Shown: one piece after another, positions 19,610 through 36,606 of the stretch
Layout of the letters: every line of letters starts with the position of its first letter
Numbering within the stretch: the stretch's first letter is position 1
Position numbers and translations under genes: made by a program
Notes under the pieces: model-generated
Databases searched by the model: none
Told to the model about the DNA's origin: nothing
The model's input: only the letters and a program-made list of their open reading frames with translations
Origin: Gallionella sp.
GTDB taxonomy: Bacteria > Pseudomonadota > Gammaproteobacteria > Burkholderiales > Gallionellaceae
NCBI GenBank assembly: GCA_028689145.1
Contig: JAQTWT010000005.1
Span: 124,001-188,000 of the forward strand
DNA: 64,000 bases
Direction: 5' to 3'

Positions 19610-19671
19610 CAATTTTTAACACACTGCCCAACTCCCTCAAAGCACCACAATTCTGTTGTCAATTTTTAACA
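19610..19671. repeat. Direct repeat pair in the rTCA promoter region
   Basis: CAATTTTTAACA occurs at 19610-19621 and again at 19660-19671. The start-to-start spacing of 50 bp is close to five helical turns, and the second copy overlaps the promoter spacer. This arrangement suits cooperative binding of a regulator on one face of DNA, but no specific factor is recognised. Confidence 0.4.
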
Positions 19672-19685
19672 AACATCTTTATAAT
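19656..19685 (+). promoter_or_regulatory. Sigma70-type promoter for the rTCA cluster
   Basis: TTGTCA at 19656-19661 and a perfect TATAAT at 19680-19685 are separated by 18 bp. Transcription would start near 19692, giving a leader of about 325 nt before aclB. One mismatch to consensus in the whole promoter suggests strong expression unless repressed. Confidence 0.65.
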
Positions 19686-19795
19686 TCGCCGGACATAATA
19701 ATCGGAAGTGTTGGAGTCAGCAGACTTACCTCGCTCGAAACGTTCCTCCCTAATTCAAATATTGCCCCCAGGCTCTTATAGCCAGGGATATTCTG

Positions 19796-19966
19796 ATGCG
19801 GAAGCAAGATATAGTTTATTTGGGTGACGTGATGTCAGGAACGCAACCAGCTTTATGTCCAAAACCTCTGCCTACACGGCTCGTGGGCAAAGCGGCGAGA
19901 TTAGCTTGGAATGTATTGGCATGGGTGAAATGTTTGCATCAGCAACGTGTTACATATTGGAAATAG
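19796..19966 (+). CDS. Possible 56-residue leader ORF upstream of aclB
   Basis: ATG at 19796 follows AGGGA with 7-nt spacing and opens 56 codons ending TAG at 19966, inside the transcribed leader of the rTCA operon. The peptide begins MRKQDIVYLGDVMSG and ends VTYWK; it is slightly basic with two cysteines and three tryptophans. No family is recognised. It may be a small protein, a regulatory leader, or chance; the good ribosome site is the main support. Confidence 0.3.
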   Translation: MRKQDIVYLGDVMSGTQPALCPKPLPTRLVGKAARLAWNVLAWVKCLHQQRVTYWK

Positions 19967-20016
19967 ACTCGGCAAACAACAACCAGAATTTAATCTAGAG
20001 AAGCGGAAAGGTAGCT

Positions 20017-21297
20017 ATGAACGTCAGTGGTATGCTCCATGGAGCAGGGTTGCTCAAGATCGTTGATTTCCCGGCATCCGAAGTGCTGGGACCGGAAGCC
20101 AGCGAACACGATATCCATAACATGATCGAGCGTTGCGGCTCCGTCTTCGTCAAACCTATTTTCAGGGGCGGTATCGGCAAGAAAGGCAAATCCGGGCTGA
20201 TCGGGCGCGCCAAGGATCTGAAATCGGCGCTGGCCGAAAAAGAGCGTTTGTACTTTGCCGAATATAAAGTCGGCGATGTTATGTACAAGTCGCGCGGTGT
20301 CACCTTCGAGGGCGCAATACCGGCCCAGCATGAAATCTATTTTTCGATCACCGATTCGACCCGCTACCGCGCGCCGGTCATGACGCTCACGCATCACGGC
20401 GGCATGGACATCGAAGAGCTGGACAAGACCCAGATCATCGAAGTGCCGTTCGACCCGCTGACCGGCCTCAAGTCTTTCGTCATATCCAACGCACTGACCG
20501 ATCTCGGCGCACCGAAGGAAATCATTTCCCCGCTGGTGCAGCACCTGCCCAAGCTGTGGGACCTGTACCACCACTACGGCATGACCACGCTGGAACTTAA
20601 TCCGATCCGCATGATGCCGAACAAGTCCGGCTCGCTGGTTCCAGTGGCCTGCGACTTCAAATGCGGCTTCGACCGCGACGATCCGCGCATAAACCGCCTG
20701 ACGTTGCCCGAAGATATTTTCGTCACCGAAGCCAACGACTTCGAGCAGGAGATCAACGAACTGCGCACCTATCAGGGCCAGAGCGACGTTTATGTGATCA
20801 ATGACAAGGGCACGATATTGGCTCCCACCTTCGGCGGCGGCGCGAACTCGCTGGTCACCGAAGTGCTGGGCAACGATGCCATCATCTCCTCCGACTTCGG
20901 CGGAAACCCGCCCTACGAGAAGATGTACGACGTGATGCGCATATCCCTCAAGTACTACCTCAAGCAGACCAACGTGCTGTTCATCATCGGCGGCAAAGCC
21001 AACAACACCGACATTTTCGTGACCTTCCGCGCGATGGCGGATGCGCTGCGCGACTACTTCAGCGAGCGCGGTGCCACACCGTTGTATGTGGTGATCGGTC
21101 GCGGCGGCCCCCAGGTAATCCGCGGTATGGGCGCATTCAAAGATGTGCTCGACTCCTTGCGTATTCCCTACAAGATTTTCGGCTTCGATTCCGCGATGAC
21201 CGATGTGGTGAACTACGCGCAGGAAGCGGATCGCTGGATGAAGGCGGGTGGCCGCGCCGAAGTGGCGAAGCTGCTGGGTCTGCCTGCTGACGCGTGA
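20017..21297 (+). CDS. aclB: ATP-citrate lyase, small (ATP-grasp) subunit, type II-like
   Basis: The 426-residue protein corresponds to the N-terminal part of eukaryotic ATP-citrate lyase and is related to the succinyl-CoA synthetase beta subunit. With the large subunit it cleaves citrate, using ATP and CoA, to acetyl-CoA and oxaloacetate, the defining step of the reductive TCA cycle. Visible parts are the ATP-grasp region (KPIFRGGIGKKGKSGLIG, LELNPIRM near residue 190) and the C-terminal CoA-ligase domain with PTFGGGANSLVTEVLG, DFGGNPPYEKM and VVIGRGGPQVIRGMG. The start has AAAGG 6-7 nt upstream. It lies about 325 nt behind a strong promoter and 163 bp ahead of aclA, with a palindromic repeat in between. 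A simple succinyl-CoA synthetase is excluded by the lyase domain of its partner. Confidence 0.88.
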   Translation: MNVSGMLHGAGLLKIVDFPASEVLGPEASEHDIHNMIERCGSVFVKPIFRGGIGKKGKSGLIGRAKDLKSALAEKERLYFAEYKVGDVMYKSRGVTFEGAIPAQHEIYFSITDSTRYRAPVMTLTHHGGMDIEELDKTQIIEVPFDPLTGLKSFVISNALTDLGAPKEIISPLVQHLPKLWDLYHHYGMTTLELNPIRMMPNKSGSLVPVACDFKCGFDRDDPRINRLTLPEDIFVTEANDFEQEINELRTYQGQSDVYVINDKGTILAPTFGGGANSLVTEVLGNDAIISSDFGGNPPYEKMYDVMRISLKYYLKQTNVLFIIGGKANNTDIFVTFRAMADALRDYFSERGATPLYVVIGRGGPQVIRGMGAFKDVLDSLRIPYKIFGFDSAMTDVVNYAQEADRWMKAGGRAEVAKLLGLPADA

Positions 21298-21305
21298 TGA
21301 ATTGC

Positions 21306-21434
21306 GTAGGTTGGGTTAGGCGCTTTTTTTGCGCCGTAACCCAACAACAAAATTGGTTAGGATAATTGAGGTTTGTTGGGTTACGTCCGTAGGTGGTGAG
21401 CTTGTCGAACCATAAGACCGCTAACCCAACCTAC
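21306..21434. repeat. 129-bp palindromic repeat element between aclB and aclA
   Basis: The ends are perfect inverted 14-mers, GTAGGTTGGGTTAG (21306-21319) and CTAACCCAACCTAC (21421-21434). Inside are two further GGGTTA/TAACCC stretches, including a hairpin with a T7 loop at about 21312-21343. It encodes nothing and resembles a MITE or REP-like element that folds strongly in RNA. Placed between the two subunit genes, it may change their expression ratio. Confidence 0.75.
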
Positions 21435-21460
21435 ATAAATAATTAGCAAAGGTGAAAGCA

Positions 21461-24163
21461 ATGAGAAAGCCTGGTATCAAAGACTTTAAATATTTCGTCG
21501 GCATCAAATCTCTGGCCGATATCGCCACGCGCGATGACCGCATCTGCGTGCTGAACATCACCGGCAACGAATCCCGTACCGTGACTCCGGTCAGCCACGC
21601 CTATTCCGGCGGCAACATCGTATTTGGCACCTCCCCCGGCCGCCGCGGGCAAGTCGTCGAGACACCCGCAGGCAATATTCCCGTGTACAACAACGTGCGC
21701 GAAGGCATGGAGGCCGGTCACAAGTTCAACGTCGGCGTGGTCTATCTGCCCCCCTCCGCCGTACGCGACGGCGTGGCAGAACTGATCAGGATCAATCCCG
21801 ATGTTGAAAAAGTCATCATCATCACCGAAAAAATATCGGTGCATGATTCGCGCGAAATCCGCGCGCTCGGCCAACAGCGCGGCGTGGACATTTTCGGCGG
21901 CAACTGCTTGGGCGTAGCCGACTCCTGGAACCAGGTACGCATCGGCGGCGCGTTGGGCGGCGACAATCCCGGCGAAACCCTGCGCAAGGGTTCGGTCGCG
22001 ATTTTCTCCAACTCCGGCAACTTCACCACCACGATTGCGAACTACCTGTCCATCGGCGGCTGGGGTACCACGACACTGATCTCCAGCGGCAAGGATATCT
22101 ACATCAATTACGCCGCGCCCGAATTCGCCTACGCCATGTCCAATGACACGCGCACCAAGGCAGCGGTGTTGTATTCCGAGCCGGGCGGTTACTACGAACA
22201 CGACGTAGTGTTTGACAAACCGGTGGTCGCCTGCGTGGTGGGTCGCTGGAAAGCCACCCTGACCCGCGCCGTGGGCCATGCCGGTGCCATCGCCGGATCG
22301 GGCGACGACGCGCGCGCAAAAGAAAAATGGTTCATGGACAAGTTTGGCGTAAGCGAACTGTTCACACCGGAAAATCCGGTATGCTCCAAGAAAGGCGCAG
22401 TTGTCACCAACATCGCCCACATCCCGCAGGCGCTGACTGCTGTGATGAAGCTGAACGGCGTTGAAAAAGATTTCGCGCCGGAAGGCAATCTGGAACTGAA
22501 ACCATGGTTCGGCGACAACCAGGGCATAAAGATGCCTGCTGCACTCGACATCCCGGTGGTCAAGGCTCTGGCACCGTACGATTTGCAGATCGCCGAACTG
22601 TTGAAAAACGTTGGCGCGATTTTCCCGCGCCAGACCATGAAAGATTGCTCGGGCAGCTCGGTGATGGACCCCAAGACGCAAGTCACCAAGGTCAACAATA
22701 TCTCCATCCTCGACCTTTCCAAGCAGCCGCTGGAATCCAACCTGTGTCTGGCGCTGGTGCGCGAGCTCAACGACGAGAACGACAACGCGCTGTACAACCT
22801 CGCGGTGGCCGCGCACGTCAATCTGCACAATGATCCGATGCTGGCCGCCGCCGAAGCCGCGCGCGAAGCGGGCAATGCGCCCAACACCGCGATTAGCGCA
22901 GCGGTCGCCTTGCTCGGGCCGAAGCGCGTGGATGCCGCGCGCGCAGCCGCCGACTCCCTGACGGAAATCTTCGCGCACTCCGGTTTACTGAAGGGCGACG
23001 ACGAAGCAGCCAAAGTCAATCCTGCCGCAGCTACTGCCGAGCAACTTGCCACACTGGTAGGCAGCGCACCGGATGCGAAAGCCGAAGCCATGCTCAAAGC
23101 CTACGATAAGCGCGGCGCGAAGTCTGTGTTCGTAAAATATCTGCGTTCGCTCAAAGGCCACCCCACCGCTGATGCCGTGCTGGCCGCACTGACCACCACC
23201 ATCGCGTGGGAGCCGCTGATGCGCAAGCGCATTTCCAAGCTGACCGTGCGCAATATGCCCTGGTACACCAAGCTGTTCGGCATGATTATCGGCGCGTCCA
23301 CCGAAGCCAAGCACCACGCTGCTGGCAGCTTCTGCGGTGTGGACAACCAGGAAATTCTGGACTCCTGGACCGTCACGCAACTGGCCTACATCTCGCTGCT
23401 GGGCGAGCGCCCCACTGCGGCCAGCCTGCTGCCGCTACAAGTCATCCTGGGGCTCATCATTTCCAACGGCGTGGGAACCATCTCCTCGCAAGGCTGCAAG
23501 GGCGCGGTATCCGCCGACGGCCCCGAGTCGCCGGAGCGTGTGCAGATCAACAAGGGCATGATCGGCTTCCTCACCCATACCGGTTTCGCCCACGGCGGCA
23601 ACGGTTATGAAGGCATCCAGTTCCTGATCGAAAATTTCAAGGACACCAAACTGGCCGATGCAAGCAACCCCGGCAAAGACATCGACTTGAAAAAAATCAC
23701 CACCGACTTTGCCATCGCATTCAACAAAGAGAAGAAGCAGAGCAAGGCGCTGGGCACCGGCGTGCGCAACATCCCCGGCGTGAACCACCCGGTGTTCAAG
23801 GGCCTGCCGGTCAACCACGATCCGCGCGAAACCTTCATCTCCGAGTTTTTTGCCGAGCGCGGCGAGAAGAACGTGTTCCACGACTTCTACAAGACGCTGG
23901 TGCAGTCGCTGTACGATAACGGCGTAACCAGCAACGTGTTCTGCGTAAACATTGATGCCGTGATCGCAGCCTCGCTGCTCAAGCTGCTGTGGCCGCGTTA
24001 CCGCAACGGCCAGTTCAGCGAGAATCTGATGGAAATGGCCGCCTTCACCGCCTTCCTGTTCGGCCGCATGGCCGGATGCGCGGGCGAAATCGACGACCAT
24101 ATCAACCGCGGACGCAACATGGATACCCGCACTCCGGCTTCTCAGTGCAGCCACGTTTCCTGA
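21461..24163 (+). CDS. aclA: ATP-citrate lyase, large subunit (CoA ligase + citryl-CoA lyase), type II-like
   Basis: The 900-residue subunit combines a CoA-binding/ligase part (residues 1 to about 320) with a citrate-synthase-like lyase part (about 480-900). His273 in VGHAGAIAG is the expected phosphohistidine. In the lyase part, the VNHPVF segment with His776 and Asp832 in FCVNIDAVI match the catalytic pair of the citrate synthase fold. The N-terminal Rossmann segments (GNCLGVAD, FSNSGNFTTTIANY) are clear. At 900 residues it is much longer than the roughly 610-residue AclA of Chlorobium, matching the 'type II' ATP-citrate lyase known from Nitrospira, Magnetococcus and tubeworm symbionts. The ATG at 21461 has AAAGGTG 6-7 nt upstream; GTG at 21452 overlaps that ribosome site and is unlikely. 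Confidence 0.9.
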   Translation: MRKPGIKDFKYFVGIKSLADIATRDDRICVLNITGNESRTVTPVSHAYSGGNIVFGTSPGRRGQVVETPAGNIPVYNNVREGMEAGHKFNVGVVYLPPSAVRDGVAELIRINPDVEKVIIITEKISVHDSREIRALGQQRGVDIFGGNCLGVADSWNQVRIGGALGGDNPGETLRKGSVAIFSNSGNFTTTIANYLSIGGWGTTTLISSGKDIYINYAAPEFAYAMSNDTRTKAAVLYSEPGGYYEHDVVFDKPVVACVVGRWKATLTRAVGHAGAIAGSGDDARAKEKWFMDKFGVSELFTPENPVCSKKGAVVTNIAHIPQALTAVMKLNGVEKDFAPEGNLELKPWFGDNQGIKMPAALDIPVVKALAPYDLQIAELLKNVGAIFPRQTMKDCSGSSVMDPKTQVTKVNNISILDLSKQPLESNLCLALVRELNDENDNALYNLAVAAHVNLHNDPMLAAAEAAREAGNAPNTAISAAVALLGPKRVDAARAAADSLTEIFAHSGLLKGDDEAAKVNPAAATAEQLATLVGSAPDAKAEAMLKAYDKRGAKSVFVKYLRSLKGHPTADAVLAALTTTIAWEPLMRKRISKLTVRNMPWYTKLFGMIIGASTEAKHHAAGSFCGVDNQEILDSWTVTQLAYISLLGERPTAASLLPLQVILGLIISNGVGTISSQGCKGAVSADGPESPERVQINKGMIGFLTHTGFAHGGNGYEGIQFLIENFKDTKLADASNPGKDIDLKKITTDFAIAFNKEKKQSKALGTGVRNIPGVNHPVFKGLPVNHDPRETFISEFFAERGEKNVFHDFYKTLVQSLYDNGVTSNVFCVNIDAVIAASLLKLLWPRYRNGQFSENLMEMAAFTAFLFGRMAGCAGEIDDHINRGRNMDTRTPASQCSHVS

Positions 24164-24181
24164 TGAACCAATAACAGACCC

Positions 24182-24205
24182 CCTCCCCTTCACGGGGAGG
24201 TTTTT
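24182..24205 (+). terminator. Rho-independent terminator after aclA
   Basis: CCTCCCC (24182-24188), loop TTCAC, GGGGAGG (24194-24200), then five T. It would end the aclBA transcript, so aconitase probably has its own promoter in the following 236 bp. Confidence 0.7.
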
Positions 24206-24441
24206 AACTGGGGGAGCAAAACAAACACCGCCGCAGCATCTCAGCAATTAATTCCTGACCTGCAGGAATGGATTCGAGTCCGGCCCGATTAATTTTTTAC
24301 GCAATAACCCGGGGAAGAACAGATGGGCAGAGCACAGCGCGTAGCCCCATCGAAGTTCATCAATCTCAGAGGGGTTGCGCTGCATCACCCGTCTTATGAC
24401 GATTACTGATTTTTATTTGACGCAATAATTTTGGAGAGCTT

Positions 24442-26388
24442 ATGTCTGCATTAAACGTCGCACAAAAGATTCTGCTGGCCAATGCTGCCGGCGGACTGAA
24501 ACAACTCCCCGCAGCGGGACAACCGCTGGAAATCCAGTTCACCCATACCCTGTATCAGGATGCCACCGGCACAGCTGCCGCGCTGGCTTTTGAAAAAATG
24601 GGGGTGGATCGCGTGAAGACCACTTCCGTTATCGTGGTGGATCACAAAACCCTGCAAGTCGGCTTCATTGATGCCGACGACCATCGCTACCTCGAGAGCT
24701 TCAGCAAGAAATACGGCTGCTGGTTTTCGCGCAGCGGCAACGGCATCTGCCACAGCGTGTTCCTGCAAGATTTTGCCGCACCGGGCAAATCGGTGATCGG
24801 TTCAGACTCGCACACCACTAACGCGGGCGGTATGGGTATGCTGGCGATGGGCGCGGGCGGTACCGACGTGAGCTTCGCGATGGCGGGAACCTCGTACAAG
24901 ATGGAAATGCCCGAAGTGGTGCAAGTCAATCTCACCGGCTCGCTGCATCCCGGAGTATTGGCCAAGGACGTGATCCTGAACGTGCTCAAGTTCATCGGCA
25001 TCAAGGGCAACAAGGGTATCTGCCTCGAGTACACCGGCCCCGGCCTGAAGAGCCTGAATGTATCCGACCGTGCCACCATCTGCAACATGGGCACCGAAGG
25101 CGGCGTCGCCTTCTCGATCTTTCCGTCGGACGACATCACCAAGGCTTTCCTAGAAGGCCGTCAGCGCGCCAAGGATTACCAGCCGCTGGTTGCCGATGCG
25201 GGCGCGACCTATTCGCGTACCGTCGAGATTAACCTGTCCGACCTGCAACCGACCATCGCGCTGTATCCGCGCCTGAAGGGCATGGATCCGGTCAAGAACC
25301 ATGCAGGCATGGCGATTGATGCCGTGTTTATCGGCAGCTGCACCAACGCCAACTACGAAAATCTGGCGCGCGTCGGCGAAATCCTGCGCGGTCGCAAGGT
25401 TGTGGTAGACACCGCCATCGCCCCCGGCTCTCAAGCCATTGCGCGCCAACTGGCGGCTGCCGGTTACTTGGAAATCTTCTACGCCGCCGGTGTGCGCGTG
25501 ATGGAAAATGCTTGTTCCGCCTGTATCGGTCAGGGCTTCAGCCCTTCCAGCAACGGCGTGATGCTGTCCACTGCCAACCGCAACTTTGAAGGCCGCTCCG
25601 GCACAGAGACCGCCGCCGTACATCTGGTCAGCCCGGCCACTGCCGCCGCCAGCGCCGTGACAGGCGTGCTGACCGACCCGCGCGACCTACTCGGCAACAA
25701 TGCGGAACTTGCCATCAAGCTGATTCCGCCGGTCGTCGACATGGATTCCTACATTGCGCCGCTGCCGCTTGCCGAGGCTGCCAAGGTCGTGATGCATTAC
25801 GGCCCGGGCATCGCGCCGTTGCCAAACCTCGACCCGTTGCCGGCCAAGCTGTCCGGTGAAATCCTGCTCAAGCTGGGCAACGAGATCACCACCGACCATA
25901 TCCAGCCCGCAGGCAAGTACCTCGCTCTGCGTTCCAACGCTGACGAATACGCCAAGCAGGCAACTTTCGTCCAAGTGGACAAGACCTTCAGCGCACGCGC
26001 TGCCTCAGTACGCGACGCGGGCAAGCACGGCTTCATCGTGGCCGGCGACGGTTACGGCATGGGCAGCTCGCGCGAACACGCCGGTTTGTGCCCGCGCATC
26101 CTGGGCATCCGCGCCATCGTAGCCAAGGGCTTCGAGCGCATCCACCTGGCCAACCTCGCCAACTTCGGCATCGTTGCGTTCACCTTCGCGAACCCGGCTG
26201 ACCTAGATACGCTCAATCAGGGCGATGCGGCGGCACTCGATACCTCCAGCATCGAAAGCGGCGAAGCCAAGCTGGTTGTCGGCGGCAAGGAGATTCCTCT
26301 GAAGCTCGCACAGGGCAAGGAAGACATCCCGATGATCCGCGCCGGTGGTGCGCTTTCCCTGTTTGCCAGCCAAATGAAGGCAAGCTGA
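24442..26388 (+). CDS. acnA: Aconitate hydratase
   Basis: The 648-residue protein interconverts citrate and isocitrate through cis-aconitate. It has the three Fe-S cysteines in GSCTNANYENLARVG and ENACSACIGQGF, the substrate loops GSDSHTTNAGGMGMLAMGAGG near residue 120, and the C-terminal swivel domain with GDGYGMGSSREHAG and FERIHLANLANFGI. At under 650 residues it is the short, Aquifex/mitochondrial-like type rather than the 860-residue AcnA or AcnB of most proteobacteria. A GGAGAG ribosome site precedes ATG 24442. In this cluster it would run from isocitrate to citrate to feed ATP-citrate lyase. The gene symbol is by function only. Confidence 0.9.
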   Translation: MSALNVAQKILLANAAGGLKQLPAAGQPLEIQFTHTLYQDATGTAAALAFEKMGVDRVKTTSVIVVDHKTLQVGFIDADDHRYLESFSKKYGCWFSRSGNGICHSVFLQDFAAPGKSVIGSDSHTTNAGGMGMLAMGAGGTDVSFAMAGTSYKMEMPEVVQVNLTGSLHPGVLAKDVILNVLKFIGIKGNKGICLEYTGPGLKSLNVSDRATICNMGTEGGVAFSIFPSDDITKAFLEGRQRAKDYQPLVADAGATYSRTVEINLSDLQPTIALYPRLKGMDPVKNHAGMAIDAVFIGSCTNANYENLARVGEILRGRKVVVDTAIAPGSQAIARQLAAAGYLEIFYAAGVRVMENACSACIGQGFSPSSNGVMLSTANRNFEGRSGTETAAVHLVSPATAAASAVTGVLTDPRDLLGNNAELAIKLIPPVVDMDSYIAPLPLAEAAKVVMHYGPGIAPLPNLDPLPAKLSGEILLKLGNEITTDHIQPAGKYLALRSNADEYAKQATFVQVDKTFSARAASVRDAGKHGFIVAGDGYGMGSSREHAGLCPRILGIRAIVAKGFERIHLANLANFGIVAFTFANPADLDTLNQGDAAALDTSSIESGEAKLVVGGKEIPLKLAQGKEDIPMIRAGGALSLFASQMKAS

Positions 26389-26392
26389 TTAA

Positions 26393-28738
<2,346 letters not shown>

Positions 28739-28778
28739 TAAATATCCCAAGGCACCCTGTACTCTGAAATTTACGCGG

Positions 28779-28810
28779 GTCGAGTAATTCTTTTGGTACA
28801 ATTACTCGAC
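28779..28810. promoter_or_regulatory. Perfect 11-bp inverted repeat upstream of korA
   Basis: GTCGAGTAATT (28779-28789) and AATTACTCGAC (28800-28810) form perfect arms around a 10-nt loop, 74 bp before the korA start. There is no T-run behind it, so a simple terminator is less likely than an operator or an mRNA hairpin. It is the cleanest palindrome in the rTCA region. Confidence 0.5.
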
Positions 28811-28883
28811 TCTTGTAACCGTTCAGAATCGCTCTGCGGACAGCAGGTTATCCAATATAACTGTGTTAAAAAAGGACTAGCAG

Positions 28884-30611
28884 ATGCAAGATAAAACCAA
28901 GCATGATCTAATCATCCGCGTCGGCGGCGAGGGAGGCGAAGGTGTCATCTCCGTCGGCGACTTCATAACTCAGGCCTGCGCGCGCGTGGGCCTCGATGTA
29001 TACACATTCAAGACCTTCCCTGCCGAAATCAAGGGAGGCTATGCAATGTATCAGGTGCGTGCCAGCACCGAAGCGGTTTACAACCAGGGCGACATTTTCG
29101 ATGTACTGTGCGCGTTCAACGGCGAAGCCTACGACATGAACAAGGCTAACCTGAAAGCGGGTCATGCACTGGTCTACGACTGCCCCGGCGACTTTGAGCC
29201 GGAAATTCCAGCTGGCGTATTCGCCTATCCGATCCCGATGACGCAGACGGCGAAAGAGCTGAATAACCCGCGCGCCAAGAACATGGTAGCAATGGGTGCA
29301 TTGTCGGTGTTGTTTAATATTCCGGAAGCATCACTGCGCGAAGTGATCGAGACCAAATTCAAACGTCGCGGCGATGCGGTGGTACAGGGCAATCTCACCG
29401 CATTCGAGCGCGGGCAGGAATTGGCCAGAGCCTTGAAGAAAACCGACCCTTGGGCCATCGGCGTACCGAAAGCGGATGCCAAGCGCGATGTCATCGTGAT
29501 GTCGGGCAACAACGCCATCGGTCTTGGCGCGCTGATCGCGGGGGTGGAATTCTTTTCCGCCTACCCCATCACCCCGGCGACCGAAGTCGCCATCTACGTG
29601 TCCAAGCATCTGCCCAAGCGCGGCGGCACCTTGATTCAGGCCGAAGACGAAATCGCTTCGATCTCGCAAGTGCTCGGCGCATCCTACGCGGGCAAGAAGG
29701 CAATGACCTCCACTTCCGGCCCCGGCCTGTCGCTGATGAGCGAAATGCTGGGCATGTCGTTCATGAGCGAAACACCCTGCGTGGTGGTAGACGTACAGCG
29801 CGGCGGCCCTTCGACCGGCATGCCGACCAAGCATGAGCAGTCCGACCTGTTCCTGGCAATACACGGCGGGCACGGCGATTGCGGGCGCATCGTACTGTCC
29901 GTGGAAAACGTGCATGACTGCGTCGGCTTGACCGTAACGGCGTTTAATCTGGCAGAAAAATATCAGTGTCCTGTGTTGCTGCTTTCCGACGGCTCGCTGG
30001 CGTTCTCGACGCAAAGTATCCCCTACCCCAATCCTGACGATTACAAGATCGTGGATCGTTTGCGCTGGGACGGTAAAGGCGAATTCAAGCGCTATGCGCT
30101 GACCGAAAGCGGCATCTCGCCGATGGTCGACCCCGGCACGCCCAACGGCATGCACATCGCCACCGGGCTGGAGCACGGCGAATCCGGCATGCCCAGCTAT
30201 TCCGGTGAGAACCATGAGACCATGCAGGCCAAACGTTTCAACAAACTCAAGACCGTAGCCAGCGACATGCCACCGGCGGAAGTGGACGGCGACGGTGCGG
30301 CGGATCTCGGCGTGATTGCCTGGGGCAGCACCATCGGTGTGGTGCGTGAAGCGCTGCAACGCCTGCGCGCAGAAGGCTACAAGGTCAAGGGCTTCTACCC
30401 CAAGCTGTTGCATCCGCTGCCTGCGCAGCAATTCGAGGATTTCGGCGCATCGTGCAAACGCACCCTGTTGCCCGAAGTCAATTACCTTGGGCAATTGGCC
30501 CACTTTGTGCGCGCGGAAACTTCGTTGCGCCCCGAGTCCTACACCATTTGCGGTGGCATGCCCTTCACACCGGAAATGATTGTTAAACGAGTAAAGGAGA
30601 TGCTGGCATGA
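28884..30611 (+). CDS. korA: 2-oxoglutarate:ferredoxin oxidoreductase, alpha (gamma-alpha fused) subunit
   Basis: The 575-residue subunit has a gamma-type domain at residues 1 to about 190 (GGEGGEGVISVGDFITQACA, TFPAEIKGGYAMYQ) and the alpha domain from about 205 (GNNAIGLGALIAGVEFFSAYPITPATEVA, EDEIASISQVLGASYAGKKAMTSTSGPGLSLMSEM). With KorB it fixes CO2 onto succinyl-CoA using reduced ferredoxin to form 2-oxoglutarate. The two-subunit fusion is the KOR layout; a pyruvate enzyme is possible in principle, but the adjacent isocitrate dehydrogenase and fumarate reductase genes favour 2-oxoglutarate. ATG follows AAAGGACTAGCAG. It begins a tightly overlapping five-gene unit ending at 35016. Confidence 0.88.
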   Translation: MQDKTKHDLIIRVGGEGGEGVISVGDFITQACARVGLDVYTFKTFPAEIKGGYAMYQVRASTEAVYNQGDIFDVLCAFNGEAYDMNKANLKAGHALVYDCPGDFEPEIPAGVFAYPIPMTQTAKELNNPRAKNMVAMGALSVLFNIPEASLREVIETKFKRRGDAVVQGNLTAFERGQELARALKKTDPWAIGVPKADAKRDVIVMSGNNAIGLGALIAGVEFFSAYPITPATEVAIYVSKHLPKRGGTLIQAEDEIASISQVLGASYAGKKAMTSTSGPGLSLMSEMLGMSFMSETPCVVVDVQRGGPSTGMPTKHEQSDLFLAIHGGHGDCGRIVLSVENVHDCVGLTVTAFNLAEKYQCPVLLLSDGSLAFSTQSIPYPNPDDYKIVDRLRWDGKGEFKRYALTESGISPMVDPGTPNGMHIATGLEHGESGMPSYSGENHETMQAKRFNKLKTVASDMPPAEVDGDGAADLGVIAWGSTIGVVREALQRLRAEGYKVKGFYPKLLHPLPAQQFEDFGASCKRTLLPEVNYLGQLAHFVRAETSLRPESYTICGGMPFTPEMIVKRVKEMLA

Positions 30612-31504
30612 ACGCACCCGTAAAACTTCAAGAACGCTTCCACCAGGTTCAACTGGAACCCAAGGATTACCGGGACGGTGTCGCATCGTTTTGGTGTCCG
30701 GGTTGCGGCCACAACGGTGTTCTGACCTCGTTTCTGCGCGCGCTTTCCGATATCGGCATCGACCCGCAAAATCTGATGAGCATCTCCGGCATCGGTTGCT
30801 CCTCGCGTCTGCCCTATTTCGTAAAATCCTACAAGATGCACACGCTGCACGGCCGTGCGGGCCCCGTGGCGACTGGTGCCCAGTTGGCACGCCCCGACCT
30901 TTCCGTGGTGGTGACCGGTGGCGACGGCGACGGTTTCTCCATCGGCGGCGGACACATGCCGCACATGGCGCGCAAGAACGTCAATATGACCTACATCCTG
31001 ATGGACAACCACATTTACGGCTTGACCAAGGGGCAGACATCGCCCACCTCGCAGCTCGCAATGAAGGGCACCGTTACACCTTTCGGATCGGTGGAAGAGC
31101 CGCTGGACCCCATCATGTACATGCTGGCCTACGGCGCTACCTATGTTGCACAAGCCTTTTCGGGCAACGTCAAACTGGCATCGCAACTGATCAAGGACGG
31201 CATGGAGCACAAGGGTTTCGCTTTCATCAACCTGCTCTCACAGTGTCCGACTTTCAACGAAATCGACACCGCCAAGACCTTCAAGAGCGCTTGCGAAGTG
31301 ATGGATACCAGCCACGACATAACCGACCTGAATGCCGCCATGCAGGTAGTGCAAAAAGCCAGACAGGAAGGCCGTCTGGCTTCCGGGCTGCTGTACAAGG
31401 TCGAGCGTTCTACACTGGATGATCGTATGGCGGAACTGGTGACGCGCGTCGGTGGGCACAAGGATTATGATCTGCGCAAGGTCATAGATTTATCGCGCCC
31501 ATGA
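30608..31504 (+). CDS. korB: 2-oxoglutarate:ferredoxin oxidoreductase, beta subunit
   Basis: The 298-residue subunit binds thiamine diphosphate and a [4Fe-4S] cluster. Visible are WCPGCGHNGVL with two cysteines, GIGCSSRLPYF with a third, the TPP motif GGDGDGFSIGGGHMPHMARKNVN, NHIYGLTKGQTSPTS, and a C-terminal cysteine in LLSQCPTFNEI. It starts 4 nt inside the end of korA and its stop overlaps the next start by 4 nt, so translation is coupled across the set. No ferredoxin-like delta subunit is encoded here; an external ferredoxin must serve. Confidence 0.9.
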   Translation: MNAPVKLQERFHQVQLEPKDYRDGVASFWCPGCGHNGVLTSFLRALSDIGIDPQNLMSISGIGCSSRLPYFVKSYKMHTLHGRAGPVATGAQLARPDLSVVVTGGDGDGFSIGGGHMPHMARKNVNMTYILMDNHIYGLTKGQTSPTSQLAMKGTVTPFGSVEEPLDPIMYMLAYGATYVAQAFSGNVKLASQLIKDGMEHKGFAFINLLSQCPTFNEIDTAKTFKSACEVMDTSHDITDLNAAMQVVQKARQEGRLASGLLYKVERSTLDDRMAELVTRVGGHKDYDLRKVIDLSRP

Positions 31505-32169
31505 CCGATCAGCAAGCCCCGGTACACACGGCTGACGAAAGTCAGCCGGTATCCCTGACCATCAACGGCATGACTGTCAGCGCCCACGCGGGCATGACCG
31601 TGGTCGAGGCCGCCTGGCTGGGCGGCGTGCCTCGGGTGACCGGTGTCGGCTGCATGGAAGGAGTATGCGGTTCCTGCCGCATCATGCTGCGCCGAGATAC
31701 AAAGGTTTCTGTAGGTCTGGCCTGCCAGACTTTTGTCGAAAACGGTGACGATGCCATTTTCCTGCCGCCGGCATCGGCCCCGCGTCACCATTACGAGATC
31801 TGTGACTTCAAGGATAGCTGGGACATCCATGCCCGCTTTCAGAATATTTTCCCCGAAGCGGAACGCTGCCGGCATTGCCACGGTTGCAACGTGTCCTGCC
31901 CCAAGGGTATCTCCGTCGAGGAAGGTGTGGCACAGGCTTCTGCGGGACGCTTCCGCGATGCCGGTGAGATATTCTTCGAGTGCGTCATGTGCGAACTATG
32001 CGACGGTGCCTGTCCCGAACTGATCGCCCCCGCGCATGTGGGGCTGTTCAGCCGCCGCGTAACGGCACATTTTCACCTGCGTCCGCCCAACCTGATCAAC
32101 CGTCTGGAAGAATTGCGCCAGGACAAACAGGATAAATCAGGAATCACCCGGGAAGAAAAAGATGAGTAA
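31501..32169 (+). CDS. frdB: Fumarate reductase iron-sulfur subunit (soluble type)
   Basis: The 222-residue protein has an N-terminal [2Fe-2S] domain (GCMEGVCGSCRIMLRR, then ACQTF) and a C-terminal ferredoxin-like part with two cysteine sets, CRHCHGCNVSCPKG and CVMCELCDGACPEL. These are the electron-relay clusters of succinate dehydrogenase/fumarate reductase B subunits. The gene is coupled by 4-nt overlap to korB and by 8 nt to the flavoprotein gene. No membrane anchor gene follows; instead a NuoF-like flavoprotein does, so electrons probably come from NADH rather than quinol. A role as a generic ferredoxin subunit is less likely given the neighbour. Confidence 0.82.
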   Translation: MTDQQAPVHTADESQPVSLTINGMTVSAHAGMTVVEAAWLGGVPRVTGVGCMEGVCGSCRIMLRRDTKVSVGLACQTFVENGDDAIFLPPASAPRHHYEICDFKDSWDIHARFQNIFPEAERCRHCHGCNVSCPKGISVEEGVAQASAGRFRDAGEIFFECVMCELCDGACPELIAPAHVGLFSRRVTAHFHLRPPNLINRLEELRQDKQDKSGITREEKDE

Positions 32170-33754
32170 AGGCATCCCTCTGGCCGAGGCACTGGCACGC
32201 TACCGTGCCGACGCGGATATAGGCTCGCCGCCCGAATTGTCAGACATTGACACTTTGCTCAACACCTATCACCCCGACCACCTGCGCGATAGCGTGGTCA
32301 AGCTGACGGTCGGAGCCAACGCGGGCGACAGATGCCAGCGCGAACTGGCCAACCTGCTGCAATCCGAAGCCTTCATCGACGAAGCCGATCTGGCCGGTAC
32401 GCCGGTGACCGATGTAGATGTGCTGGTGATCGGCGGCGGCGGTGCCGGTTGCGCGGCAGCGCTGATGGCGGCCGAAAAAGGCGCGCGCGTGCTGCTCGCT
32501 ACCAAGCTGCGTCTCGGCGACAGCAACACGGTGATGGCGGAAGGCGGCATTCAGGCCGCCATCGAACCGGAAGATTCAATTCAGCAACATATTCAGGACA
32601 CCCTGCGCGGCGGGCATCATATCGGCGACCCATCGCTGGTGGCTGCGCTGGCCGAAGACGGTCCCGATGTACTGCGCTGGCTGATACAACAAGGCATGCA
32701 GTTCGACCAGGCTCCCGGCGGCGATCTGCATACGCGCAAAGCCGGCGGCATGAGCACTCCGCGTCTGGTACATTGCCGCGACTATACCGGACTGGAAATG
32801 ATGCGTGTGCTGCGCGAGGCGGTCATCCAGCACCGCAGCATCGAAGTGTGGGAACAGAGTCCTGTCGTCGAACTGCTGTCCAACGAAACCGGACAAAAAT
32901 GCGTCGGCGCGGTGCTGACCTCGCTGCTTGATGACCAGTTGCGCATCGTCCGTACCCGTTCAGTGATTCTCGCCACCGGCGGACTGGGGCGGCTGCATCT
33001 GAACGGTTTTCCGACCTCCAATCATCTCGGTGCAACCGGCGACGGGCTGGTACTGGCCTACCGCATCGGTGCAAAACTGTGCGAACTGGATTCTTTCCAG
33101 TACCACCCGACCGGTCTGCTGCACCCGTCCCACTTGGCGGGAAAGCTGGTAACCGAAGGCCTGCGCGCAGCGGGCTGTCTGCTGGTAAATGCGCTGGGGC
33201 AGCGCTTCGTAAACGAACTGCAACCGCGAGACATCGTGTGCGCCGCTATCCTGCGCGAATGCAGCGAAGGACGCGGTGTCCGTGTCGATGAGCAGCGCGT
33301 CGGTGTCTGGCTGGACACTCCGCGTCTGGAACGCGCCCAGCCGGGCTTGCTGGAACAGCAATTCCCCAACCTGATGACGCGTACCAGAATTGCCGGTGTA
33401 GATCCCCGTATCCAACCTTTGCTGACTCACCCGACCCTGCACTACCAGAACGGCGGTGTGGTCATCGATGTCAACGGTGCCACAACGGTACCCGGCCTGT
33501 ACGCGGTGGGCGAAGTATCCGGTGGTATCCACGGACGCAACCGTCTGATGGGCAACGCCCTGCTCGAAATCATCAGCTTCGGACGGCGCGCCGGTGCGGC
33601 AGCCACTGAAAACCGCGACCGCGGCCCGAAAAAGGTTACGCTGGAACATGTGAACCGGCTGCGCCGCGCCCTGACCATCGCCGGTATGCCGATGACGCAA
33701 CGCGCGCCGCAGGTATTGCCCGATTATGCAGCGGGAGGCACATGGAATCGCTGA
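32162..33754 (+). CDS. frdA: Fumarate reductase flavoprotein subunit, with N-terminal extension
   Basis: The 530-residue flavoprotein reduces fumarate to succinate. FAD motif VLVIGGGGAGCAAALMAAEKGARV begins near residue 83; NTVMAEGGIQAA, the DSFQYHPTGLL segment, HYQNGGVVIDVNG and GEVSGGIHGRNRLMGNALLE are the family's FAD and active-site stretches. About 80 residues before the FAD motif are unusual for FrdA/SdhA. They hold a LNTYHPDHLRDSVVKLTVG segment and may bind a partner subunit. L-aspartate oxidase is an alternative family member, but the operon with frdB and a NADH-binding subunit favours fumarate reductase. It overlaps the next gene by 13 nt. Confidence 0.83.
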   Translation: MSKGIPLAEALARYRADADIGSPPELSDIDTLLNTYHPDHLRDSVVKLTVGANAGDRCQRELANLLQSEAFIDEADLAGTPVTDVDVLVIGGGGAGCAAALMAAEKGARVLLATKLRLGDSNTVMAEGGIQAAIEPEDSIQQHIQDTLRGGHHIGDPSLVAALAEDGPDVLRWLIQQGMQFDQAPGGDLHTRKAGGMSTPRLVHCRDYTGLEMMRVLREAVIQHRSIEVWEQSPVVELLSNETGQKCVGAVLTSLLDDQLRIVRTRSVILATGGLGRLHLNGFPTSNHLGATGDGLVLAYRIGAKLCELDSFQYHPTGLLHPSHLAGKLVTEGLRAAGCLLVNALGQRFVNELQPRDIVCAAILRECSEGRGVRVDEQRVGVWLDTPRLERAQPGLLEQQFPNLMTRTRIAGVDPRIQPLLTHPTLHYQNGGVVIDVNGATTVPGLYAVGEVSGGIHGRNRLMGNALLEIISFGRRAGAAATENRDRGPKKVTLEHVNRLRRALTIAGMPMTQRAPQVLPDYAAGGTWNR

Positions 33755-35016
33755 AATCCGACATGAATAATATCGAAAAAACACCTCTGGTTCTGCTCCA
33801 CCCGGTTCAGCGCATCGGTGTCGACATGGCCCGCTGGCGCAAATCCGGCGGTGGCGAAGCTCTTGCCATTGCGGCCAAAGATCTGGGCGCTGTGCGCGAA
33901 GAAGTTAAAAAAGCCGATCTGCGCGGGCTGGGCGGCAGCGGCTTTCCGGTGTGGCGCAAATGGGAAATGGCCCTTCCCGAACAGCCCAAGCCGGACAAGT
34001 ATCTGGTGGTAAACGGTAACGAGGATGAACCCGGCACTTTCAAGGACAGGCTGCTTCTGGAAGAAACACCGCATCAGGTAATCGAAGGCGCGGTGATTGC
34101 GGCACTGGCGATCGGTGCCAATCGCGTCGTGTTCTATACCAATCCGGACATGAAACGCTCCCTCGCCTCCATGCGCATGGCGATCGAACAATGGCAGGCA
34201 TCGGATTTGCTGGCACTCGCCTCGGGCGCGCTCGGCAAGCCGCTGGTGATTGAACTGTGTCCCGGTTCCGGACATTACATCGGCGGAGAAGAAACCGCGG
34301 CGATGGAGTGGATCGAGGGACGCTTCCCGTTCCCGCGCGGCAAACCGCCATATCCGGCACAGGCCGGCGTATACGGCAACCCGACCGTAATCAACAACGT
34401 CGAAACGATGGCGCATATATCCCACATCGTAAAGCGCGGCGGCGATTGGTTCAAATCGCTCGGCAAAAATTCAGGCAGCGGCACCAAACTCTACTCGCTG
34501 AGCGGCGATGTGCTGCATCCCGGCGTATTCGAATTGCCGATGGGTACGTCGTTGCGCGAACTGATTTATGTGCACGGCGGCGGCCTGCTGTCCGGCAAAC
34601 CGCTCAAGGCGGTATTCACCGGCGGGCCTTCCAGCAACATGCTGACCCCGGTCGACCTGGATGTGGCGCTGGATTTTGAATCGGTGCGCGCGCGCGGCAG
34701 CAGTCTCGGCACCGGCGCGATGATCGTAGTGTCGGAAGGCACCGGCATCGTCAAGCGCGTGGCCGAATACATGCGCTTCTTCGCCCATTCATCCTGCGGT
34801 CAATGCAACTCGTGCAAGGTAGGCACTGCCACGATGAGCCGTCTGCTGGACAGAATAGACACCGGTGAAGGCACCGCAGCCGACCTCACCACCCTGAAGA
34901 ACCTCTGCACCATGCTGCCCGGCAGTGGCCGCTGCCATCTGGTCAACGGTGCCGTGTTACTGCTCGACAGCGCGTTCCGCCACTTCCACGACGAATTCAA
35001 GCAGGCGTTGCGCTAA
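33742..35016 (+). CDS. NuoF-like NADH-binding flavoprotein of the fumarate reductase module
   Basis: The 424-residue protein matches the NADH- and FMN-binding subunit of complex I and NAD-reducing hydrogenases. It shows GLGGSGFPVWRKWEMA and NGNEDEPGTFKDRLLLEETPHQ (FMN/NADH sites), GHYIGGEETAAM, the SLBB-like middle part, and the [4Fe-4S] cysteines in SSCGQCNSCKVG and SGRCHL. No NuoE or NuoG partner is nearby, and the gene overlaps frdA, so it most likely feeds NADH electrons to FrdB/FrdA. This resembles the soluble NADH-dependent fumarate reductase described from Hydrogenobacter thermophilus. Start 33742 is tentative; ATG 33763 is also possible. Confidence 0.82.
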   Translation: MESLKSDMNNIEKTPLVLLHPVQRIGVDMARWRKSGGGEALAIAAKDLGAVREEVKKADLRGLGGSGFPVWRKWEMALPEQPKPDKYLVVNGNEDEPGTFKDRLLLEETPHQVIEGAVIAALAIGANRVVFYTNPDMKRSLASMRMAIEQWQASDLLALASGALGKPLVIELCPGSGHYIGGEETAAMEWIEGRFPFPRGKPPYPAQAGVYGNPTVINNVETMAHISHIVKRGGDWFKSLGKNSGSGTKLYSLSGDVLHPGVFELPMGTSLRELIYVHGGGLLSGKPLKAVFTGGPSSNMLTPVDLDVALDFESVRARGSSLGTGAMIVVSEGTGIVKRVAEYMRFFAHSSCGQCNSCKVGTATMSRLLDRIDTGEGTAADLTTLKNLCTMLPGSGRCHLVNGAVLLLDSAFRHFHDEFKQALR

Positions 35017-36572: not shown

Positions 36573-36593
36573 CGTGCGCTATGCGCACGCTAC
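36569..36593. repeat. Perfect hairpin overlapping the stop codon of the MEMO-AMMECR1 gene
   Basis: GTAGCGTGCGC (36569-36579) and GCGCACGCTAC (36583-36593) are perfect 11-bp arms around TAT. It overlaps the TAG stop and ends just before the amrS ribosome site, so it may tune amrS translation. A related element lies at 47211-47264. Confidence 0.65.
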
Positions 36594-36606
36594 ATGGAGG
36601 TTTAAC

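What the first reader, a model, noticed from the sequence alone, without database searches (positions are those of the whole stretch)
19656..35016. Reductive TCA cycle cluster with type II-like ATP-citrate lyase in a probable betaproteobacterium
Genes for both ATP-citrate lyase subunits, aconitase, isocitrate dehydrogenase, KOR and fumarate reductase are consecutive on one strand. ATP-citrate lyase with KOR is the hallmark of rTCA CO2 fixation; the surrounding genes (ccm operon, sucrose operon, glnD, map) look betaproteobacterial, where the Calvin cycle is the norm. The catalytic residues (phosphohistidine 273, lyase His776 and Asp832) are retained. Whether this was acquired from another phylum is inference.
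Basis: partly seen in the sequence, partly recalled or inferred. Interest (0 to 1): 0.9.

Follow-up and report, generated by a model that had tools for sequence, protein, structure and literature searches.

The report
Second carbon-fixation cycle in iron-oxidising Gallionella
A relative of the freshwater iron-oxidising bacterium Gallionella carries the genes for a reverse Krebs cycle next to its normal Calvin cycle, with an unusual five-gene unit that may let NADH drive part of that cycle, so these well-known iron oxidisers may fix CO2 in two ways.

Summary
Both ATP-citrate lyase (ACL) subunits, aconitase, monomeric NADP-isocitrate dehydrogenase, a 2-oxoacid:ferredoxin oxidoreductase (KOR), an Fe-S protein, a fumarate-reductase-like flavoprotein and a NuoF-like protein lie in a row on the + strand (20017-35016). 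The genome belongs to a Gallionella-like genus. About 33 kb upstream are NifJ-type PFOR, PPDK and a complete Rnf. Form II RuBisCO and phosphoribulokinase are also present, so rTCA genes are added to the Calvin cycle. ACL occurs in 21 of 76 genomes of the genus. Single-chain NifJ follows ACL (18 of 21 against 5 of 55), but other PFOR-like enzymes are common without ACL, so PFOR itself is not diagnostic. AclB lies in a clade with KOR nearby in 19 of 33 named loci, apart from a clade of mostly soil heterotrophs with none in 36. The unusual part is the module korA-korB-FeS-frdA-nuoF, complete in 15 of 16 loci read; it stands where tubeworm symbionts have flx-hdr-kor-tfr. I read it as an NADH-linked fumarate reductase tied to KOR; coupling is conjecture. 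Both cycles together are known in Gammaproteobacteria and claimed for one betaproteobacterial MAG. Acquisition from another phylum is not supported. No activity data exist here.

The parts
20017..21297 (+). aclA-like subunit of ATP-citrate lyase (ATP-grasp + citrate-binding), 426 aa
   Evidence: Pfam PF16114 61.0 bits (cut-off 26.8), PF08442 49.1 (29.5); relatives, partial ones included, in 21 of 76 genomes of the genus
21452..24163 (+). aclB-like large subunit (CoA-binding/phosphohistidine part plus C-terminal citryl-CoA-lyase-like part), 903 aa; alternative ATG at 21461
   Evidence: Aligns with citryl-CoA synthetase 6hxq and succinyl-CoA synthetase alpha including the GHAG histidine H276; model matches Chlorobium limicola ACL 6hxj, Foldseek E 6.8e-11 but low TM-scores (low-confidence model)
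24442..26388 (+). aconitate hydratase, 648 aa
   Evidence: NF005558 687.5 bits, cut-off 612
26516..28738 (+). monomeric NADP-dependent isocitrate dehydrogenase (the ORF opens at 26396; 26516 is the likely ATG)
   Evidence: TIGR00178 1341.6 bits, cut-off 950
28884..30611 (+). korA: fused gamma-alpha subunit of 2-oxoacid:ferredoxin oxidoreductase
   Evidence: TIGR03710 632 bits, cut-off 482.75; best PDB match 6n2n_A E 1.2e-268
30608..31504 (+). korB: beta subunit of KOR (overlaps korA by 4 nt)
   Evidence: TIGR02177 275 bits, cut-off 261.9
31501..32169 (+). Fe-S protein, one [2Fe-2S] (C51, C56, C59, C75) and two [4Fe-4S] Cys motifs (C123-C133, C161-C171); TfrB-like N-terminal part
   Evidence: 29% to tfrB of G007
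32162..33754 (+). TfrA/FrdA-like flavoprotein, 530 aa, proposed NADH-linked fumarate reductase catalytic subunit
   Evidence: PF00890 269 bits; model best match E. coli FrdA 1kf6 E 4.8e-27; YHPTG, TE..R, HYQNGG and NRLMGN motifs kept
33742..35016 (+). NuoF-like protein (FMN/NADH domain, SLBB, Cys ligands C352, C355, C358, C398 of a [4Fe-4S] domain), proposed NADH entry
   Evidence: PF01512 140 bits, PF10589 84 bits; NuoF-like chains of complex I and of hydrogenases in the PDB, E to 6.7e-90
19656..19685 (+). promoter-like match TTGTCA-18-TATAAT upstream of aclA
   Evidence: consensus match only; 4 found in the region against 7.0 in shuffles
24182..24200 (+). terminator-like stem with T tail between aclB and acn
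   Evidence: consensus match only; 24 found in the region against 17.0 in shuffles

Best explanation
A reductive TCA (rTCA) gene set in a Gallionella-like lineage that also keeps the Calvin cycle. Proposed operation: citrate is split by type II-like ACL to acetyl-CoA and oxaloacetate; PFOR and PPDK take acetyl-CoA to pyruvate and PEP; PEP/pyruvate carboxylase and malate dehydrogenase refill C4; the flavoprotein reduces fumarate with electrons from NADH entering at the NuoF-like subunit through the Fe-S protein; KOR carboxylates succinyl-CoA using reduced ferredoxin, probably made from NADH by the nearby Rnf complex at the cost of ion-motive force; IDH and aconitase close the cycle. Shown: the genes, their order, their families and their distribution. 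Inferred: direction of flux, NADH as donor of the fumarate reductase, Rnf as ferredoxin supplier. With RuBisCO beside it, I expect rTCA to run under low oxygen and to supply acetyl-CoA and 2-oxoglutarate, with the Calvin cycle supplying sugars or taking over when oxygen rises.
For: Gene content and families. KOR's closest solved relative is 6n2n, the Magnetococcus OGOR (organism and role recalled). NifJ-type PFOR (TIGR02176 1776 bits), PPDK and PRK and RnfABCDGE lie at C3:106-120 kb; form II RuBisCO (NF010002 901 bits); PEP carboxylase. Single-chain NifJ in 18 of 21 ACL+ and 5 of 55 ACL- genomes (Fisher p 2.8e-10), with PPDK beside it in 6 of 8 loci read, while nifH does not track it (2 of 11 against 21 of 65, p 0.49). 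AclB lies in a 37-row clade (SH-aLRT 100) where KorA is in the held flank of 19 of 33 named loci (11 of 14 with both flanks full), against 0 of 36 named loci in the 37-row clade of mostly heterotrophs (0 of 23 with both flanks full). The kor-FeS-frd-nuoF module is complete and co-oriented in 15 of 16 loci read, window included, the 16th cut by the contig end.
Against: PFOR-like enzymes are not peculiar to ACL carriers. Six ACL- genomes have a second, about 1640-aa type (419-421 bits to TIGR02176 in the two scored, cut-off 911) next to an rnfC-like gene; with these the count is 18 of 21 against 11 of 55, p 2e-7. 34 of 55 ACL- genomes have POR_N hits of a ~420-aa class; one of these, in G022, is a multi-subunit Por-like set. 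So the association is with the NifJ type, not with PFOR activity. Forward-TCA genes gltA, SDH and sucA are present. G000 has nifH. The module also sits in G044 (one contig, 99% complete), which lacks ACL and single-chain NifJ, next to gltA-sdh-mdh, and in ACL-less G050. 3 of 21 ACL+ genomes show no NifJ (G017 79%, G057 66%, G084 95% complete). The flavoprotein has TEGxRAAG where SDH and NadB chains have TExxRGxG. Fumarase, PDH and the rest of the Calvin cycle were not tested. No transcript, protein or isotope data.
Confidence: 0.65

Rival explanations
1. Branched use: ACL, KOR and IDH do not run as a closed autotrophic cycle. Calvin-cycle carbon enters as PEP or pyruvate, goes to oxaloacetate and by the reductive branch to 2-oxoglutarate and citrate, and ACL supplies acetyl-CoA for lipids, saving the CO2 lost at pyruvate dehydrogenase.
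For: RuBisCO and PRK in the same genome and RuBisCO in 67 of 76 genomes of the genus; PEPC and pyruvate carboxylase B genes present; gltA kept; PFOR-like enzymes also in relatives without ACL, so PFOR does not prove a closed cycle.
Against: The single-chain NifJ type, mostly with PPDK beside it, follows ACL across the genus. Four ACL+ genomes (G012, G015, G057, G068) show no RuBisCO hit; G012 and G068 are 97-99% complete.
Confidence: 0.33
2. Forward metabolism: the KOR module is an oxidative 2-oxoglutarate oxidoreductase passing electrons to NAD+ via NuoF, and ACL makes acetyl-CoA from citrate, as presumably in the ACL-bearing soil heterotrophs. No CO2 fixation.
For: Module beside gltA-sdh-mdh in ACL-less G044; ACL without KOR in the held flank of Paraburkholderia, Caballeronia, Variovorax, Microvirga and Methylobacterium; forward-TCA genes in G000.
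Against: G000 already has 2-oxoglutarate dehydrogenase E1. Window AclB is not in the heterotroph clade. The fumarate-reductase-like subunit inside the module has no evident role in 2-oxoglutarate oxidation. NifJ and ACL co-occur.
Confidence: 0.16
3. NifJ and Rnf serve nitrogen fixation and the ACL operon is unrelated to them.
For: G000 carries nifH at C22; NifJ and Rnf have that role in other diazotrophs (recalled).
Against: Of 11 nifH+ genomes only G000 and G086, both ACL+, have a single-chain NifJ hit; 16 ACL+ genomes have NifJ without a nifH hit. Counting the 1640-aa type as well, 5 of 11 nifH+ against 24 of 65 nifH-, p 0.74. NifJ is beside PPDK in 6 of 8 loci read, not in G007 and L085.
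Confidence: 0.06
4. Assembly or binning artefact: the operon is foreign sequence binned into this genome.
For: The genome is in 23 contigs; nothing else.
Against: The window is internal to a 217,585-base contig with TCA, ccmF and glnD genes; estimated contamination 0%; G+C of the operon 0.589 against 0.570 for the rest of the window; aclA in 21 genomes of the genus, one of which matches a contig length of Ca. Ferrigenium altingense.
Confidence: 0.01

Closest known systems
rTCA gene clusters of tubeworm symbionts and Thioflavicoccus mobilis (Rubin-Blum et al. 2019, PMC6315080; parts 1 and 2 of 3 of the text read)
   Same: Type II ACL with acn, idh, KOR, TfrA-type fumarate reductase, pntAB and rnf genes in a genome that also has RuBisCO.
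   Different: Those clusters use four-subunit KorABCD interspersed with flxABCD-hdrABC. The window genome shows only two POR_N hits, NifJ and the fused KorA, and instead has KorAB-FeS-FrdA-NuoF. Related species of the genus do carry a tubeworm-like cluster (the likeness rests on the paper's description of gene content, no tubeworm sequence was compared).
Betaproteobacterial MAG 'bin 139a' related to Ferrovales from a boreal lake (PMC6094481; passages read)
   Different: A single 4.6-Mb MAG, no gene anatomy in the passages I read, another named order; whether it belongs to this lineage I cannot tell.
Gallionellaceae pangenome (Hoover et al. 2023, PMC10734462; passages read)
   Same: Same family; RuBisCO in 94 of 103 genomes.
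   Different: The words citrate, TCA and Calvin do not occur in its main text by the tool's count; in the carbon-fixation passage autotrophy was judged by RuBisCO genes.
Soluble NADH-dependent fumarate reductase of Hydrogenobacter thermophilus (recalled, paper not seen)
   Same: NADH as donor for a soluble fumarate reductase within rTCA.
   Different: Five-subunit enzyme of other make-up (recalled); here three subunits with a NuoF-like protein, in one gene string with KOR.

Membership tests
Reductive TCA cycle (ACL variant) | ATP-citrate lyase, both subunits | tested here: met
Reductive TCA cycle (ACL variant) | 2-oxoglutarate:ferredoxin oxidoreductase | tested here: met
   (family; substrate inferred from relatedness to 6n2n)
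Reductive TCA cycle (ACL variant) | pyruvate:ferredoxin oxidoreductase | tested here: met
   NifJ at C3:107021-110608, TIGR02176 1776 bits; not diagnostic by itself, as PFOR-like enzymes occur in ACL- relatives
Reductive TCA cycle (ACL variant) | fumarate reductase | tested here: inconclusive
   TfrA-group flavoprotein with active-site motifs kept; activity and donor unknown
Reductive TCA cycle (ACL variant) | fumarase and both succinyl-CoA synthetase subunits | not tested
   A SucD-like reading frame at C6:163635 (30% to AclB) was not annotated; fumarase not searched
Reductive TCA cycle (ACL variant) | net reductive flux from CO2 | not testable with these tools
   needs enzymology or 13C labelling
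Type II ATP-citrate lyase | AclB of about 900 aa shared with tubeworm-symbiont/Nitrospira-type ACL, with its own sequence clade | tested here: inconclusive
   903 aa; 58-70% to ACLs of gamma- and alphaproteobacteria, 'Deltaproteobacteria' bins and one Nitrospirae bin. The length criterion is recalled; no named tubeworm symbiont sequence was in the tree
Calvin cycle | RuBisCO and phosphoribulokinase | tested here: met
   form II RuBisCO NF010002 901 bits; PRK NF011997 472 bits; other steps not tested
Tubeworm-type rTCA cluster (flx-hdr-korABCD-tfrAB) | flx/hdr genes and multi-subunit KOR next to ACL | tested here: not met
   window genome has only two POR_N hits, NifJ and fused KorA; such a cluster is in other species of the genus
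L-aspartate oxidase (NadB) | model score above NadB cut-off | tested here: not met
   324 bits against cut-off 452.75; a true NadB (NF006567, 938 bits) lies at C12
Flavin-based electron-bifurcating NuoF-type enzymes | NuoF-like subunit with NuoE-like partner and extra Fe-S domains (recalled) | tested here: not met
   NuoF-like protein here has only the FMN, SLBB and one 4Fe-4S domain and no NuoE in the module; the Fe-S protein next to it could supply clusters

The most novel reading that the evidence does not exclude
KorA-KorB-FeS-FrdA-NuoF is one enzyme complex in which exergonic NADH-to-fumarate electron flow drives the low-potential carboxylation of succinyl-CoA to 2-oxoglutarate (two neighbouring rTCA steps coupled by electron bifurcation), letting weakly reducing Fe(II) oxidisers run the cycle without a separate ferredoxin pool. 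With recalled textbook potentials, worked out by hand, the coupled reaction would be exergonic by roughly 30 kJ/mol.
Probability: 0.13. Interest if true: 0.9.

Novelty: new variant of a known kind. Interest (0 to 1): 0.6.

Why it matters
Gallionellaceae are model neutrophilic Fe(II) oxidisers and have been treated as Calvin-cycle autotrophs. If about a quarter of this genus (21 of 76 held genomes) has a second CO2-fixation route (recalled as cheaper but oxygen-sensitive), isotope-based reading of iron mats (RuBisCO fractionation assumed) and energy budgets of Fe(II) oxidation need revision. How a donor as weak as Fe(II) supplies ferredoxin-level electrons becomes testable in an existing named enrichment species, and the five-gene module gives a concrete enzyme to purify.

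Tried and rejected
Rejected: ACL as sufficient proof of rTCA (37 rows of the AclB tree form a clade of mostly soil heterotrophs with no KOR in the held flank). Rejected: the flavoprotein as the genome's NadB. Rejected: NifJ explained by nitrogen fixation across the genus. Led nowhere: mapping the ACL lyase residues onto citrate synthase by profile alignment (no meaningful match); the first gltA tree read about 7 of 60 rows in a wrong frame and was redone; the AclB model is low-confidence (mean pLDDT 70.5), so its Foldseek matches have low TM-scores. The ORF picker used misses genes under long antisense frames; presence and order were therefore counted by tblastn. L016, L160 and L210 were fetched and not used for any claim.

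Full report
What is there. The window is bases 124001-188000 of contig 3 (217,585 bases) of a 2.74-Mb genome in 23 contigs, 96.7% complete, 0% contamination. Bases 20017-35016 carry nine genes on the + strand: aclA, aclB, acn, monomeric NADP-idh, korA (fused gamma-alpha), korB, an Fe-S protein, a TfrA/FrdA-like flavoprotein and a NuoF-like protein. The last five overlap by 4, 4, 8 and 13 bases (coordinates). Gaps of 127-278 bases part aclA, aclB, acn, idh and korA, with a terminator-like stem after aclB, so the cluster is probably more than one transcript.

Whose genome. The 24 named loci that form a clade with the window's AclB (79-97% identity) bear names such as Gallionella, Sideroxydans, Ca. 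Ferrigenium altingense, Gallionellales, Nitrosomonadales and Hydrogenophilales; two are filed as 'Gammaproteobacteria bacterium'. Contig lengths coincide for several genomes that labels 'same genus' (G020 with 387,220 bases = Ca. Ferrigenium altingense AG11; G016 with 226,089 = Gallionella sp. STA_52), so the genome belongs to a Gallionella-like genus of Gallionellaceae.

The rest of the cycle. On the same contig upstream of the window lie 2-oxoglutarate dehydrogenase E1, gltA, SDH, malate dehydrogenase, pntA, pyruvate carboxylase B, phosphoribulokinase, NifJ-type PFOR (1195 aa), PPDK and RnfABCDGE. PEP carboxylase is on C14. Form II RuBisCO is on C7. So the 2-oxoacid carboxylases and citrate cleavage of rTCA, the two marker enzymes of the Calvin cycle, and forward-TCA enzymes coexist. 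Fumarase, PDH, SucC and the remaining Calvin steps were not searched.

Distribution in the genus (76 genomes held). AclA in 21, by whole or partial matches. RuBisCO in 67. Citrate synthase in 73. Single-chain NifJ-type POR_N hits, classed by me from score, frame length and profile coverage (some are fragments), in 18 of 21 ACL+ and 5 of 55 ACL-, Fisher p 2.8e-10; in the 47 genomes at least 90% complete, 13 of 14 and 2 of 33. Fused KorA in 15 of 21 ACL+ and 2 of 55 ACL-. nifH in 11 of 76, not associated with NifJ (p 0.49); the window genome does have nifH. Outside the genus, strong AclB matches were found in none of 16 genomes of other families of the order and in 3 others, all of one family, among 369 genomes searched at class level, own genome included.

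A check that cut against me. Other PFOR-like enzymes exist in ACL- relatives. Six ACL- genomes carry a POR_N hit in a frame of about 1500-1720 aa; the three I read (G044, G047, G088) are 24-29% identical to NifJ and have an rnfC-like gene beside them, and the two scored reach 419-421 bits on TIGR02176, below its cut-off of 911. With these counted the ACL association is 18 of 21 against 11 of 55, p 2e-7. In addition 34 of 55 ACL- and 13 of 21 ACL+ genomes have hits of a ~420-aa class, a mixture of multi-subunit KorA and Por-like alpha subunits; the one I annotated, in G022, is a Por gamma-alpha-beta set with a GltD-like NAD(P) protein (PorC family 202 bits, cut-off 81; PorA and PorB models below cut-off). 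So it is the NifJ type that goes with ACL; PFOR activity as such is probably wider, and its presence does not prove a closed rTCA cycle. In the window's genome NifJ is the only PFOR candidate among two POR_N hits.

History. The AclB tree (84 rows, quick method, SH-aLRT only; L069 could not be included) has a 37-row clade holding the window, Hydrogenophilales, alphaproteobacteria such as Blastochloris sulfoviridis and Rhodospirillaceae LM-1, Achromatium and a Thiotrichales bin (support 100), and a 37-row clade of mostly soil heterotrophs: Burkholderiales, Microvirga, Methylobacterium (99); a 'Deltaproteobacteria'/Nitrospirae group of 9 and Marinobacterium stand apart. KorA lies in the held flank of 19 of the 33 named loci of the first clade and of 0 of 36 of the second; where both flanks are full, 11 of 14 and 0 of 23. 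On a gltA tree of 60 genomes (17 ACL+; four ACL+ genomes had no usable gltA), ACL presence needs 3 changes against 15.1 in shuffles: mostly inherited within part of the genus. G065, one of the changes, sits on a long branch and may be a paralogue. Nothing seen points to another phylum.

Two architectures. (a) Tubeworm-like: hdr/flx genes and multi-subunit KOR upstream of aclAB, with tfrBA in G007; seen in G007, G005 and many of the named loci. (b) The window type: korA(fused)-korB-FeS-frdA-nuoF, complete and co-oriented in 15 of 16 loci read, window included; the 16th, G086, is cut by its contig end. Among the loci read it follows idh directly only in the window and in G016 (= L041); in G020, G055 and G079 it lies about 28-50 kb from aclA. 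G055 has both forms of KOR on one contig. Two carriers lack an ACL hit: G044, where the module follows gltA-sdh-mdh, and G050, which also has a tubeworm-like tfr-hdr-kor-flx cluster.

The flavoprotein. Its best NCBIfam scores (TfrA 346 bits, NadB 324 bits) are below cut-off. The predicted structure (mean pLDDT 74.3) matches E. coli FrdA first (E 4.8e-27, TMq 0.62) and also L-aspartate oxidase. In 33 aligned sequences (window, 14 module copies, 6 TfrA of the other architecture, 12 from 'same phylum' genomes) the YHPTG (YHPSG in two), TE..R, HYQNGG and NR(L/I)MGN motifs are kept; the module copies share TEGxRAAG, which sets them apart from the others' TExxRGxG. Thirty genomes of other families in the phylum carry relatives at 47-53%; of the 29 held as loci, 26 show tfrB beside it and none a NuoF-like gene within the held 1.5 kb or less. 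I suspect these are Magnetococcia; not tested.

Mechanism. Most likely NADH gives electrons to the NuoF-like FMN protein, the Fe-S protein (one 2Fe-2S and two 4Fe-4S Cys motifs) passes them to the flavoprotein, and fumarate is reduced. KOR needs low-potential ferredoxin; Rnf near nifJ-ppdk can make it from NADH. Since kor and frd-nuoF overlap in the window and are neighbours in every complete copy, a physical complex is plausible. True electron bifurcation is the boldest reading; against it, the NuoF-like protein lacks the partner and extra clusters known (recalled) from bifurcating relatives.

Prior work. Coexistence of rTCA and CBB is published for tubeworm symbionts and Thioflavicoccus (PMC6315080, parts 1 and 2 of 3 read). 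A betaproteobacterial MAG near Ferrovales was said to have all genes of both (PMC6094481, passages). The Gallionellaceae pangenome paper judged autotrophy by RuBisCO; citrate and TCA have zero hits in its main text (PMC10734462, passages). Searches for ACL or rTCA with Gallionellaceae, Gallionella, Ferrigenium or Sideroxydans, limited to open-licence PMC papers, listed no paper that in the passages I opened reports ACL in Gallionellaceae. Not every listed paper was opened, and I did not see the Ca. Ferrigenium altingense description.

Noticed in passing
window 35217-37701: AmmeMemoRadiSam genes (fused B+A, then the radical SAM enzyme) follow the module; AMMECR/MEMO matches also sit next to nuoF in G044, G091, G079, G042, G083, G065 and G055. 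Meaning unknown.
   Followed up: partly
L274 1197-6128 (G047), L275 (G088), L273 (G044): A distant PFOR-like protein of about 1640 aa (24-29% to NifJ) next to an rnfC-like gene in ACL-negative relatives; function unknown.
   Followed up: partly
L278 4162-9998 (G022): Multi-subunit Por-like oxidoreductase with a GltD-like NAD(P) protein in an ACL-negative relative; similar ~420-aa alpha subunits are common in the genus.
   Followed up: partly
window 51533-53902: Phosphoketolase (NF003617, 1559 bits), a further possible route from Calvin-cycle sugar phosphates to acetyl phosphate.
   Followed up: no
L068 (NZ_VWPL01000018.1): Blastochloris sulfoviridis DSM 729, a named strain, carries kor-hdr-flx-aclAB-idh and tfrBA together; a possible laboratory model for this kind of cluster.
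   Followed up: partly
L212 from 7863 (G083): G083 has a second ACL pair (69% and 61% to the window's) that groups with Cupriavidus in the heterotroph clade.
   Followed up: partly
L194, L195 (G050): A 95%-complete genome with both a tubeworm-like tfr-hdr-kor-flx cluster and the NuoF-type module but no ACL hit: lost or missing from the assembly.
   Followed up: partly
L071-L118 in part: ACL without KOR in the held flank of soil and plant-associated bacteria (Microvirga, Methylobacterium, Paraburkholderia, Caballeronia, Variovorax, Polaromonas): function there unclear, and a warning against ACL as sole rTCA marker.
   Followed up: partly
G000:C22:8337-9152: nifH in the window's genome, one of only two ACL+ genomes of the genus with a nifH hit.
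   Followed up: partly
   Followed up: no
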